Shown one piece after another: positions 12,229 through 16,089 of a DNA stretch of 64,000 bases. The translations under genes and the position numbers were made by a program. Every line of letters begins with the position of its first letter. Within the stretch, counting starts at the first letter, position 1. Below the pieces are notes generated by a model. The model worked only from the letters and a program-made list of their open reading frames with translations. It was not told where the DNA came from and made no database searches. Source of the stretch: Rhodothermales bacterium (GTDB taxonomy: Bacteria; Bacteroidota; Rhodothermia; Rhodothermales; Bin80); assembly GCA_022822185.1 (NCBI GenBank), contig JAJECE010000061.1, positions 1 to 64,000 on the forward strand, written 5' to 3'.

Positions 12229-13371
12229 ATGAGCGGTCAACCCTGTCGTACCGTTTATCATCGTTGTTTCGCACTGGCGCTGCTCATTGCCGGCTGTGCT
12301 ACATTGAACCAAACCGGTTCGGAGAATTTTTCGTCTCCCTCTTTATGGCAGCCTGCCAATGTAATTCAGGATGCTCGACAACTGGCATTACAGGATGCAT
12401 CCGGGTCGCCTGAAGGTATCGTAGATTACATGAAGGCCAGAATGGTTGGAGTACAGCCGGTATTCGGTGACTCCATGATCTTTTCTTTACTGGGATCCAG
12501 GCGTGTAATTCAGGGAGGCAGGTTGGGGGATGCAGCGGGGTTGGGAAATTCGTTCTGGCCGGATCCAAGATCAGATTCAGGTGCCTACATGATCACGGAA
12601 CTCAGATCCTTGGAAGATCTCCCGATGAATAAGGGATCAGCGGTCATGCTGCCCCGCCACTTACTGACTTCTGAACGTATTCAGCAAGTGATCCGCCATG
12701 GTACGGAGGCGATTCTGAGCATCGGAGATGTGACCCGGCGTTTTGCATCTGCGGCAGGTGCCAATGCCCTCATATTGGAGATTGCACCACATATTCTTGC
12801 GAATCTCTCCGGGTTATCTGCGGACAGCCTTGTCCAGGGAGTGCTGCCTGTGGGCGGATACCGCCTTCCTGAACCGATACACATAGAGAACTGGATCAAT
12901 ACCTATGAATCCCCTTTGAATGTAATGGGATTTATTGCAGGTCAGGACCCGCAGTATGCATCACAGCTCATCGTGATTGCTGCAGATCCAATGTCGAGTG
13001 CTTCGGATTCCGATTTTCTGCAGTGGATGCCCTCGGCCGTTCTGCTGGAACTTGTACGCATATATTCAGCAGCAAGGGTAGGGGGGCTATTCCCGCGGCG
13101 GTCTCTACTGGTTGCTACGGGAACCGGGGCCGCATTGCAGGCCGTGTTGGAGTATCCGGTATGGCCGCGGCAAAATATCAACACGGTCGTAACACCGGGA
13201 CGATTTGGGAACGGCCATCTGCAGGTCGGCAGGGATACGATCCCTGTTTTCGGATACACATTCCCCGAACTCCATGCCCCCGATAATCTGGATGCCTGGA
13301 TTACAGCGATCCTGGAGGACGTTCACGGTAAATTAAAGTATTTGGATGATCAGCAGTTGGAGGAGAATTAG
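12229..13371 (+). CDS. Lipoprotein with M28 aminopeptidase-like domain lacking metal ligands
   Basis: Lipobox LLIAGC; NVMGFIAGQDPQYASQLIVIAADPMSSASDSDF aligns by eye with the M28 pattern NVxGxxPGxDPxxxDExVVIxAHxDH, with the H/D ligands replaced. Confidence 0.55.
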   Translation: MSGQPCRTVYHRCFALALLIAGCATLNQTGSENFSSPSLWQPANVIQDARQLALQDASGSPEGIVDYMKARMVGVQPVFGDSMIFSLLGSRRVIQGGRLGDAAGLGNSFWPDPRSDSGAYMITELRSLEDLPMNKGSAVMLPRHLLTSERIQQVIRHGTEAILSIGDVTRRFASAAGANALILEIAPHILANLSGLSADSLVQGVLPVGGYRLPEPIHIENWINTYESPLNVMGFIAGQDPQYASQLIVIAADPMSSASDSDFLQWMPSAVLLELVRIYSAARVGGLFPRRSLLVATGTGAALQAVLEYPVWPRQNINTVVTPGRFGNGHLQVGRDTIPVFGYTFPELHAPDNLDAWITAILEDVHGKLKYLDDQQLEEN

Positions 13372-13523
13372 CGGACCAAAGTGAGTGCACCGGCCTGCAC
13401 GATCAAAACCGGGCATCAATCATCACGGATGATTGGCCTGTTTCCCTGTTATTTTTCAATGAGCGGCCCCGTCAAACTAAATAATACCGGTCGATCATGT
13501 TCCACGCCCGCAGATCCCAACAC

Positions 13524-14150
13524 TTACTCTTCAATGAAGAGGCGGTACAGCCATTCATATAGATGACCCGCGGCGGGTTGATGTACGTCCAAATCGCCAC
13601 GGCCAATCGCCGTTCCCATGGGACGCGGTCTTTCACGTGCTGCCAGCCAGGCATGAATCTGTGCCCGTAACTCTTTATGTGGTTTGAATTTACGATCATT
13701 GGGTGGAATCCCGTTGATATAATCACAGGCAAGAGGCCAGATCGGGTCTTCATCAGGAATTAGTTCACGGATAAAATTCTCCAATTCGCCCGAAGAGTGA
13801 TTGTCAGGCATCATCCAGATCCCGACCCGGGGCTGAGAATCAATGATCGTCCCGGGCTTTTCAGGCTTCGTAGGAACTTGAAATTGAATGTGGTTCTGCA
13901 ACAGTTTTGCAAGTTGTTTCCACCTCCTGTCTGGATCATCATTCGCATCAATGAGAATGCCGATTGTCTCTCGGTCAAAAGTTGAAAATTCGGGATAGAT
14001 AGATTCAAACAACCGATCAATACCCTGTTTCTCAATAATTTTAAATGGAATGTCGTCACCGTAATAGGAATTCCAAATATGAATGACGACATGCTTATCA
14101 TTACTCCCCTCAACGAGTAGCACTTTTTGGGAATCTACTTCTTTGGACAT
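13524..14150 (-). CDS. TOPRIM-type DUF3226-like protein, effector partner of adjacent ATPase
   Basis: KVLLVEGSNDKHVVIHIW (TOPRIM Glu), ETIGILIDANDDPDRRWKQL (DxD-like), C-term PMGTAIGRGDLDVHQPAAGHLYEWLYRLF; starts 4 nt after the upstream ATPase. Confidence 0.7.
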   Translation of the reverse strand: MSKEVDSQKVLLVEGSNDKHVVIHIWNSYYGDDIPFKIIEKQGIDRLFESIYPEFSTFDRETIGILIDANDDPDRRWKQLAKLLQNHIQFQVPTKPEKPGTIIDSQPRVGIWMMPDNHSSGELENFIRELIPDEDPIWPLACDYINGIPPNDRKFKPHKELRAQIHAWLAARERPRPMGTAIGRGDLDVHQPAAGHLYEWLYRLFIEE

Positions 14151-14154
14151 ATAT

Positions 14155-15312
14155 TTATCGTACCTCTATGTCCTGGTCAGCTGCAATTTCGAGATGTTTC
14201 TCGGAATACTCAACGGTTCGTAGTTGACCATCTTTCTTGTCTAAGCGCACCAACGTTCCATCAGCGTTTTCATTGTCAACTGCCGCCCTTGCGAAGGCCC
14301 TGACGCAATCAAAGCTGTGAGTTGTGGCAAAGACCTGCACATTATATTTTTCTGCAGCTTCAAGCATCATTTCCCAGAAACCCTTCAATGCGGAGTAGTG
14401 AATTCCATTTTCAACTTCGTCAATGACCAGAAAACCATTACGGCTATGAGCCAGGGCAAGGGCAGCAGCGAATAGGCGCATAATGCCATCTCCGAGACTA
14501 CTCAGGGGGATTTGTTTCGGAAAATTATCAGATTTTACCACGATACGACGGCCCCCGCCATGAAATCTTCCATTCGATTCTCCAATCGCCGCAACCCGTT
14601 CTATTTGTGTGTCTGTCAGCCTGATCGCCATTAATGCGAGAGATTCCAGATCGGTAAAAACAACATTATCCCAAAAACGTGCCAGCATAGAACTGCCCGG
14701 AAGTCCTGGACCGAGTGATTCACATGCAATGGGATGGGGCAAATCGGAATCACCCAGCATCCTTTTTCGTAATCTCCGAGGTACACGACGAAACGATTCA
14801 GCTTCGGGGAAATCAGGTAATTCCAGGAAACAGGGAATCATGGATTTTGAACCATGAATGGTGATTCTCAGTGCCTTGATGTTTGAGTCTAGATGGGCAA
14901 TTTCACTGAACAGGTCAAGTTGTATAGAGGACAATTCTTCCGCATCGGTCATTTCAATACGAAGTTGATCCTGTTCTCTGCTCGGACCAATGGAGATCGT
15001 TTGATCCAGCGAGGCATCTCTACCAAAAAAGAGAGTCATGTAGTCTAGAACCGGATCATAATTTCCTGCATGGTTACTTACATATTCATATCGCTTACGC
15101 AACAATTCTTCAAATATATCATGTCTGCCCCTAGCCGCGTATACACGCACTGCTTCAAGCACAGAGGTCTTACCAACCCCATTCCGCCCTGCAATTAGCG
15201 TGACGCGTCCCAGTTTTTTGATGGAAAGATCCTGAATGCCCCGAAAATTCCTAATGGACAGATCAGGGAGATGCAATTGGGCGGGTTGGTTCTCCGACAT
15301 GTGAGGATTCAA
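14155..15312 (-). CDS. ABC/AAA-type ATPase (AAA_15/AAA_21, OLD/RecF-like)
   Basis: Walker A LIAGRNGVGKTSVLEAV; signature SLGDGIMRLFAAALAL; Walker B GFLVIDEVENGIHYSAL; switch QVFATTHSFDCVRAFA. Confidence 0.88.
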   Translation of the reverse strand: MNPHMSENQPAQLHLPDLSIRNFRGIQDLSIKKLGRVTLIAGRNGVGKTSVLEAVRVYAARGRHDIFEELLRKRYEYVSNHAGNYDPVLDYMTLFFGRDASLDQTISIGPSREQDQLRIEMTDAEELSSIQLDLFSEIAHLDSNIKALRITIHGSKSMIPCFLELPDFPEAESFRRVPRRLRKRMLGDSDLPHPIACESLGPGLPGSSMLARFWDNVVFTDLESLALMAIRLTDTQIERVAAIGESNGRFHGGGRRIVVKSDNFPKQIPLSSLGDGIMRLFAAALALAHSRNGFLVIDEVENGIHYSALKGFWEMMLEAAEKYNVQVFATTHSFDCVRAFARAAVDNENADGTLVRLDKKDGQLRTVEYSEKHLEIAADQDIEVR

Positions 15313-15441
15313 GGTTTATGGCTGAAGAAACAGAGCAATTGGTATCTCTCTTATACACAAATGCGACGATAAAGTTGAAAAATTATAAAATTAATGCCAT
15401 CCTGCTGGTCTGGATTGCCGCCTCTCATACTTGAAGATCCG

Positions 15442-16089
15442 CTAAAAGAGAACACCAGCCAGGATCGCCCATCCCTGATTGTTCAGGACGGTTAATTCGC
15501 CCGTTGCAGAATCAGGCTTTGTGACATCCTGTTGGCCCCGGTAATATCTCGCCTCCAGTGTTAAGCGCTGTGCGGCTACATCAAAATCAATCCCGATCCC
15601 GCTCATCAAACCGTAATCAAGGGTTTCAATGGATTCGTTTTCTTCAATAAAAATCTGCCCGGTATCGCTGGATTCCACCAGAATTGCGGACTGCACTACA
15701 AATAAGGCTGCACCTCCAAGGAAAATCCGGGGACGGACAATTCCTGAGGCAGCAAACCGAAATTGCGCCAGAACGGGCACAGACAGATACGAGGCTCTGC
15801 TAGTTAACAAACCGGGGAAGTCATTGTACTGCACCCGGGTTTTTGCACCCATACGAAGATAGAGTACTTCGCCAACTGCGCTAAGTCCACCGGCAATATG
15901 TAACTCAGCGGCCCCTCCACCGGCAACCCCGGTAATGCTTTCCCACGTCGTTTCTCCTGTGGCAAGATTGCCTGCAAAGGTTGTATTGATCATGCCGAAT
16001 TTGAGGGACCCGGTAACGCGTTGAGCATTGACCGAGGTCGTTCCGGTCAGGAAAAGCCCAAATAATATCAGCAGATTAAAACTTCGCAT
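15442..16089 (-). CDS. Outer-membrane beta-barrel protein (PorT/OmpW-like fold)
   Basis: Signal peptide, alternating beta-strands, LMSGIGIDFDVAAQRLTLEARYYRGQQDV, C-terminal GWAILAGVLF. Confidence 0.72.
   Translation of the reverse strand: MRSFNLLILFGLFLTGTTSVNAQRVTGSLKFGMINTTFAGNLATGETTWESITGVAGGGAAELHIAGGLSAVGEVLYLRMGAKTRVQYNDFPGLLTSRASYLSVPVLAQFRFAASGIVRPRIFLGGAALFVVQSAILVESSDTGQIFIEENESIETLDYGLMSGIGIDFDVAAQRLTLEARYYRGQQDVTKPDSATGELTVLNNQGWAILAGVLF

What the first reader, a model, noticed from the sequence alone, without database searches (positions are those of the whole stretch)
13524..15312. Two-gene AAA ATPase + TOPRIM (DUF3226-like) module resembling OLD/PARIS-type anti-phage systems
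Seen: a minus-strand pair separated by 4 nt. The first gene has full ABC-ATPase motifs (GRNGVGKT; SLGDGIMRLF; FLVIDEVENG; FATTHS). The second has a TOPRIM-like LLVEGSNDKHV...ILIDANDD and a C-terminal GTAIGRGDLDVHQPA motif. Known: ATPase-TOPRIM pairs act as defence systems (class 2 OLD/Gabija GajA as fusions; PARIS AriA + AriB with a DUF4435 TOPRIM). Inference: this is a related split system using a DUF3226-type TOPRIM effector. The pair is isolated between a lipoprotein gene and an OMP gene, which suits a cargo insertion.
Basis: partly seen in the sequence, partly recalled or inferred. Interest (0 to 1): 0.75.

Follow-up and report, generated by a model that had tools for sequence, protein, structure and literature searches.

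The report
Two-gene ATPase–nuclease phage-defence candidate (PDC-M38)
A pair of adjacent genes, an ATP-driven sensor and a small metal-dependent nuclease related to the phage-defence OLD nucleases, forms a mobile, catalogued but untested candidate bacterial immune system, and this locus hints at how sensor and nuclease divide the work.

Summary
In detail: an ABC-type ATPase (14155-15300/15312, minus) and a 208-aa DUF3226 protein (13524-14150, minus), 4 nt apart, both intact. The pair matches both parts of PADLOC's candidate system PDC-M38 (A 5e-81, B 2e-34), so it is already catalogued, though I found no paper naming PDC-M38 or DUF3226. It is not PARIS (no DUF4435) and not AbiL by PADLOC's models. 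The DUF3226 model (pLDDT 89) is closest to class 2 OLD Toprim regions, AriB next. Most of the class 2 OLD catalytic set has counterparts of the same order in 34 homologues (here E14, D18, D68, N70, E124, R162). Pairing is near-universal and the two trees agree. The pair rides prophages, plasmids as small as 4 kb, and once sits inside an Hma defence operon. In the window it fills a slot that holds other cargo, or almost none, in relatives; against a sister species 1.5 kb of it is a divergent allele between conserved flanks. Six sites keep an intact ATPase without an intact DUF3226; one shows the reverse, suggesting ATPase = restraining sensor, DUF3226 = costly nuclease effector. Function, trigger and target are untested.

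The parts
14155..15300 (-). ABC/RecF-like ATPase (AAA_15/AAA_21), PDC-M38A; likely ATG start at 15300 (alternative TTG at 15312)
   Evidence: structural match to Rad50/SMC heads, PtuA, OLD
13524..14150 (-). DUF3226 protein, PDC-M38B, predicted OLD-type Toprim nuclease, 208 aa
15166..15189 (-). Walker A GRNGVGKT (Lys invariant in 34/34)
14485..14499 (-). ABC signature SLGDG
14416..14433 (-). Walker B FLVIDE (D, E invariant 34/34)
14314..14328 (-). ATTHS H-loop (His invariant 34/34)
14158..14166 (-). C-terminal tail E-V-R; E-[hydrophobic]-R lies within the last six residues of 45 of 51 ATPase ORFs
14109..14111 (-). DUF3226 E14, Toprim glutamate (34/34)
   Evidence: equivalent by order/spacing to BpOLD E400 (PMC6755086)
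14097..14099 (-). DUF3226 D18 (D 29, E 4 of 34), equivalent to BpOLD E404
13941..13949 (-). DUF3226 D68-A-N70 (DxD position; D68 34/34; position 70 D 21, N 10, E 3)
13779..13781 (-). DUF3226 E124 at the start of a predicted helix (34/34), equivalent to BpOLD E508
13665..13667 (-). DUF3226 R162 (K 28, R 6 of 34), equivalent to BpOLD K562
13854..15353 (.). 1.5-kb allele tract: 24.5% mismatch to the sister species G396 against 6.1% in the flanks; breakpoint inside DUF3226 at about codon 99
13372..15441 (.). variable cargo slot between the lipoprotein-like gene (12229-13371) and the OMP_b-brl_2 gene (15442-16089)

Best explanation
A two-gene, mobile, abortive-infection-type defence system of the split ATPase-Toprim kind (PADLOC candidate PDC-M38). 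The ABC/RecF-like ATPase forms the sensing scaffold and probably holds DUF3226 inactive, perhaps through its conserved E-x-R C-terminal tail. When a phage product or invading nucleic acid perturbs the ATPase, DUF3226, a class-2-OLD-like two-metal Toprim nuclease, is released or activated, cuts nucleic acid (DNA nicking/cleavage slightly favoured over tRNA cleavage, on active-site resemblance only) and stops phage growth with growth arrest of the cell. Shown here by computation: gene pair, predicted folds, catalytic residues, co-inheritance, mobility, allele exchange, asymmetric decay. Inferred: complex formation, restraint, trigger, nuclease activity, target, defence phenotype.
For: Both PADLOC PDC-M38 models match the adjacent genes. 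DUF3226 model pLDDT 89.1/pTM 0.86; Foldseek top four = class 2 OLD Toprim regions 6njw, 6njx, 6njv, 6nk8 (prob 0.92-0.98, TM about 0.5 over full length), AriB at ranks 13 and 23; PDB profile hit AriB E 0.0036. Class 2 OLD metal and lysine residues (E400, E404, D455, D457, E508, K562; PMC6755086) have counterparts in the same order, similarly spaced except the last, in 33-34 of 34 sequences. ATPase catalytic residues invariant. Near-universal pairing, from 4-nt overlaps to about 10-nt gaps in most loci; distance-matrix correlation r = 0.87, 0 of 5000 permutations as high; matching clades in both trees. Mobility: viral/prophage contigs L132-L136, beside phage tail genes on a Plesiomonas plasmid, plasmids of 4.1-40 kb, embedded between hmaB and hmaC (L053). 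Patchy: 16 of 395 phylum genomes, 17 of 114 order genomes. Decay asymmetry: 6 independent sites keep an intact ATPase with DUF3226 lost or broken, 1 the reverse.
Against: No experimental data. Structural E-values are modest (best 0.017). The window copy has N70 and R162 where most have D and K, so catalysis may differ; the T506 position of class 2 OLD is not conserved; the E124 to K/R162 interval (38) is shorter than in BpOLD (54). Apart from the Hma operon, flanking genes are not visibly richer in PADLOC hits than control genes, so defence-island evidence is weak in this phylum. Decay counts are few and rest partly on draft assemblies.
Confidence: 0.72

Rival explanations
1. Addiction / toxin-antitoxin or plasmid- and prophage-maintenance module: DUF3226 is a toxin restrained by the ATPase, and phage defence is secondary or absent.
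For: Carried on very small plasmids, where the pair is most of the cargo (Klebsiella 4.07 kb, Citrobacter 6.4 kb); putative toxin lost while the putative antitoxin stays; F. nucleatum AbiLii is toxic alone (PMC3985639).
Against: The Hma-embedded location and chromosomal exchange of alleles at a fixed slot fit defence better; in the same paper AbiLi did not counteract AbiLii; related ATPases in PARIS, Septu and Gabija serve defence. The two readings overlap: PARIS is both.
Confidence: 0.15
2. It is a divergent PARIS system: AriA-like ATPase with an AriB-like tRNase effector, triggered by anti-restriction proteins.
For: AriA models hit the ATPase (1e-23); AriB is the best PDB sequence hit for DUF3226; same split layout; the 6:1 decay asymmetry fits AriA restraining AriB.
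Against: Published PARIS detection demands DUF4435 (PF14491; PMC9122126) and gene 2 shows none; PDC-M38A scores far above AriA (271 vs 83 bits); the DUF3226 fold is nearer class 2 OLD than AriB.
Confidence: 0.07
3. Cellular DNA-repair or housekeeping module (RecF/Rad50-like ATPase with a Toprim partner).
For: Closest folds of the ATPase include Rad50 and SMC heads; class 5 OLD in Sulfolobales serves the cell cycle rather than defence (PMC12796447); an orphan ATPase paralogue in this genome is under purifying selection.
Against: Patchy presence, different neighbours in almost every genome, plasmid and prophage carriage, pseudogenes, allele replacement.
Confidence: 0.04

Closest known systems
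PDC-M38 (phage defence candidate, PADLOC-DB 2.0.0)
   Same: Both components match, adjacent; the same ATPase-then-DUF3226 order in all intact homologous pairs seen
   Different: Nothing structural; it is a candidate by annotation only. This report adds fold, active site, mobility, allele exchange and decay pattern
PARIS (AriA ATPase + AriB DUF4435 Toprim; class 4 OLD)
   Same: Split ABC ATPase and Toprim encoded by adjacent genes; AAA_15/AAA_21; prophage and satellite cargo
   Different: Effector is DUF3226 not DUF4435, 208 aa against about 310; fold nearer class 2 OLD
Class 2 OLD / Gabija GajA
   Same: Toprim with two-metal residue set E, E/D+4, DxD, helical-domain E and K; ABC ATPase partner
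   Different: Here two separate proteins, and no GajB helicase next to the pair
AbiL (AbiLi/AbiLii)
   Same: ATPase scores 170 bits to a PADLOC AbiLi model over its full length
   Different: Second gene matches no AbiLii model
Septu PtuA and retron-associated PtuA ATPases
   Same: ATPase fold and profile similarity
   Different: Partner there is an HNH nuclease, not a Toprim

Membership tests
PDC-M38 | PDC-M38A ATPase | tested here: met
   E 5.4e-81, residues 15-384 against model 3-383/383
PDC-M38 | adjacent PDC-M38B protein | tested here: met
   E 1.8e-34, 4-nt gap
PDC-M38 | antiphage activity | not testable with these tools
   no paper found naming it; most PDCs unvalidated (PMC12988326)
OLD-type Toprim nuclease (class 2 active site) | Toprim fold of the OLD type | tested here: met
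   Foldseek ranks 1-4 are OLD Toprim regions, prob 0.92-0.98; E-values modest (0.017-0.05)
OLD-type Toprim nuclease (class 2 active site) | E, E/D+4, DxD, helical E, K residues | tested here: met
   E14 34/34, D/E18 33/34, D68 34/34, D/N/E70 34/34, E124 34/34, K/R162 34/34; window has N70 and R162; assignment by order and spacing, not superposition
OLD-type Toprim nuclease (class 2 active site) | T506 equivalent (T-x-E before the helical glutamate) | tested here: not met
   position 122 is variable: E 11, M 9, A 5, others
OLD classes 1-3 | ATPase and Toprim fused in one protein | tested here: not met
   two genes with a stop between
Gabija | GajB UvrD-like helicase next door | tested here: not met
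   neighbours are a lipoprotein-like and an OMP gene
PARIS | AAA_15 or AAA_21 ATPase | tested here: met
   both above curated cut-off
PARIS | DUF4435 (PF14491) partner | tested here: not met
   only PF11536 is above its Pfam cut-off in gene 2; rule in PMC9122126
AbiL | AbiLii partner | tested here: not met
   gene 2 hits only PDC-M38B among PADLOC models

The most novel reading that the evidence does not exclude
DUF3226 systems are a separate, experimentally undescribed class of split OLD-type immunity: a class-2-OLD-like (DNA-cutting) Toprim nuclease kept in check in trans by an ATPase whose conserved C-terminal E-x-R tail docks the effector, with whole alleles (ATPase plus catalytic half of the nuclease) swapped between species at a fixed chromosomal slot to change trigger specificity.
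Probability: 0.3. Interest if true: 0.7.

Novelty: new member of a known kind. Interest (0 to 1): 0.46.

Why it matters
ATPase-Toprim pairs are a widespread part of bacterial immunity, yet among the split ones PARIS is the one with a worked-out trigger and target that I could find. The PARIS literature itself notes that Toprim domains occur in many uncharacterised defence systems and that the rules separating AriB (tRNA) from OLD/GajA (DNA) are not understood (PMC12409363). DUF3226 combines PARIS's split layout with a class-2-OLD-like active site, so it directly tests whether layout or active site decides the target. The prophage-borne copies give ready-made constructs for a laboratory strain.

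Tried and rejected
Phage genome records (INPHARED) hold no match at the thresholds used; E. coli complete genomes have no DNA match to the Citrobacter pair; single-protein scans of IMG/VR gave nothing, whereas an alignment of closer sequences found five viral contigs. Neighbour enrichment for defence genes: 108 neighbours vs 72 control genes in PADLOC showed no excess; only the Hma embedding is specific, so I do not claim defence-island residence in general. Positive selection as the cause of divergence from the sister species was rejected: synonymous divergence rises with it (dS 0.80 in the ATPase, over 2 in DUF3226 codons 1-80, 0.05-0.17 in flanking genes), which means allele replacement. 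No Rfam family, tRNA, or promoter/terminator excess at the locus, and no clear flanking repeats. NCBIfam and PHROGs gave nothing specific for DUF3226. The two proteins were folded singly; no complex could be predicted.

Full report
What is there. On the minus strand, 14155-15300 (TTG alternative at 15312) encodes an ABC-type ATPase and 13524-14150 a 208-aa DUF3226 protein, with 4 nt between them. Pfam gives AAA_15/AAA_21 and DUF3226 (5.8e-48). PADLOC's candidate defence models PDC-M38A (5.4e-81) and PDC-M38B (1.8e-34) match the two genes, well above AriA and GajA models. The system is therefore already listed as a candidate; I found no paper in the held library with the terms DUF3226 or PDC-M38, and a 2026 paper states that most PDCs lack experimental validation (PMC12988326). 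A near relative in a named record is a Rhodothermales metagenome-assembled genome.

The small protein. An AlphaFold2 model from eight sequences is confident (pLDDT 89.1, pTM 0.86). Its four best PDB matches are Toprim regions of class 2 OLD nucleases; PARIS AriB follows at ranks 13 and 23. E-values are modest (0.017 at best). A 31-sequence profile finds AriB first among PDB sequences (E 0.0036), and RNase M5, another Toprim nuclease, weakly. Class 2 OLD uses E400, E404, D455, D457, T506, E508 and K562 (PMC6755086). DUF3226 has E14, D18, D68, N/D70, E124 and K/R162 in the same order; intervals from the first glutamate on are E+4, E to D +54, D to E +56, E to K +38, against +4, +55, +53, +54 in BpOLD. 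They are conserved in 33-34 of 34 sequences. The T506 equivalent is not conserved. The window copy has N70 (10 of 34 do) and R162 (6 of 34 do). The residue correspondence rests on order, spacing and fold, not on a superposition I could inspect. A 541-aa single ORF in another genome (L086) joins an AAA domain to a stretch matching DUF3226 and weakly the OLD-like Toprim model, which ties the family to fused OLD proteins.

The ATPase. Walker A, signature, Walker B and H-loop residues are invariant or nearly so. Folds nearest to it are Rad50/SMC heads, retron and Septu PtuA, and OLD (model pLDDT 77.5). Its extreme C-terminus is E-[hydrophobic]-R in 45 of 51 ORFs, from Rhodothermales to Acinetobacter plasmids and viral contigs; a docking tail is my inference.

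A pair by every measure. DUF3226 follows the ATPase on the same strand, from 4-nt overlaps to about 10-nt gaps in most loci. Pairwise distances of the two proteins correlate at r = 0.87, with 0 of 5000 permutations as high, and maximum-likelihood trees share the main clades. Part of that correlation reflects shared descent of whole loci, which is itself the point.

Mobility. 16 of 395 genomes of the phylum and 17 of 114 of the order have DUF3226; neighbours differ in almost every genome except between sister species. The pair sits on plasmids of Citrobacter (6.4 kb), Klebsiella (4.07 kb) and several Acinetobacter, beside phage tail genes on a Plesiomonas plasmid, and on five IMG/VR contigs, one of them between a phage integrase and a gpD baseplate gene. 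In G302 it lies between hmaB and hmaC of an Hma defence operon, the embedded arrangement. Beyond that case, flanking genes show no excess of PADLOC hits over control genes.

The slot in this genome. In relatives the interval between the same OMP gene and the lipoprotein or glycosyltransferase gene holds other things: two small ORFs, a beta-propeller protein, a metal-efflux-like operon, an FRG-domain protein, an AAA_14/DUF4143 protein, or almost nothing. The sister species G396 has the pair in the same slot, but a tract from about 13854 to 15353 is 24.5% mismatched against 6.1% outside. It covers the ATPase and the first ~99 codons of DUF3226. Synonymous divergence jumps with it, and dN/dS stays low (0.18 ATPase; 0.32 DUF3226 overall, 0.12-0.13 in its first 80 codons). 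I read this as recombinational allele exchange at a fixed slot with both genes kept functional, not diversifying selection.

Who restrains whom. Of loci with readable partners, about 40 have both genes intact. Six independent sites keep an intact ATPase with DUF3226 lost or broken (G000:C121 with its G396 orthologue, G279:C38, G302:C16, G463:C32, G397:C129, G190:C63); one plasmid shows a broken ATPase with intact DUF3226. An order-wide DUF3226 search was added so that both kinds of orphan could be seen; its three further intact DUF3226 genes all have the ATPase upstream. The bias fits a costly effector (DUF3226) and a partner that is safe alone, as in PARIS where AriA sequesters AriB (PMC12409363). 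Numbers are small and several genomes are drafts.

Mechanism and verdict. Shown by computation: pair, predicted folds, residues, co-inheritance, mobility, allele exchange, asymmetric decay. Inferred: complex, trigger, nuclease activity, target, defence. Works like: split OLD/PARIS-type abortive infection. Member of: PDC-M38 (both sequence features met); not PARIS (DUF4435 absent), not Gabija, not AbiL, not fused OLD classes.

Noticed in passing
L070:9457-10626 (own genome G000:C121) and L072:9528-10667 (G396): A second, orphan copy of the ATPase (about 51% identical to the window ATPase) without DUF3226, at the same site in both sister species, dN/dS 0.20; in the own genome its signature reads SLGDD instead of SLGDG.
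   Followed up: partly
L053:8968-11617 and L076:16165-18565: At the same Hma-embedded site G302 has ATPase + DUF3226 + an apparently N-terminally truncated AlbA_2 ORF, while G463 has ATPase + full-length AlbA_2 and no DUF3226: reciprocal loss.
   Followed up: partly
L067:9661-11361, L076:16165-17394, L136:6332-7654: SLFN_AlbA_2-type proteins recur near the pair (L067 and L076 are 39.6% identical to each other; L136 matches the Pfam family), a possible third partner.
   Followed up: no
L071:9178-10338 (G396 ATPase): The sister-species ATPase is one of the few that lack the E-x-R C-terminus (ends DIRIV), although its DUF3226 is intact.
   Followed up: no
L086:8255-9880: 541-aa fused AAA + Toprim protein whose Toprim start matches DUF3226 (7.7e-6) better than the OLD-like Toprim model.
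   Followed up: partly
L125:5162-10999: In G395 the same OMP-lipoprotein slot holds a three-gene metal-efflux-like (RND) operon, judged from sequence only.
   Followed up: no
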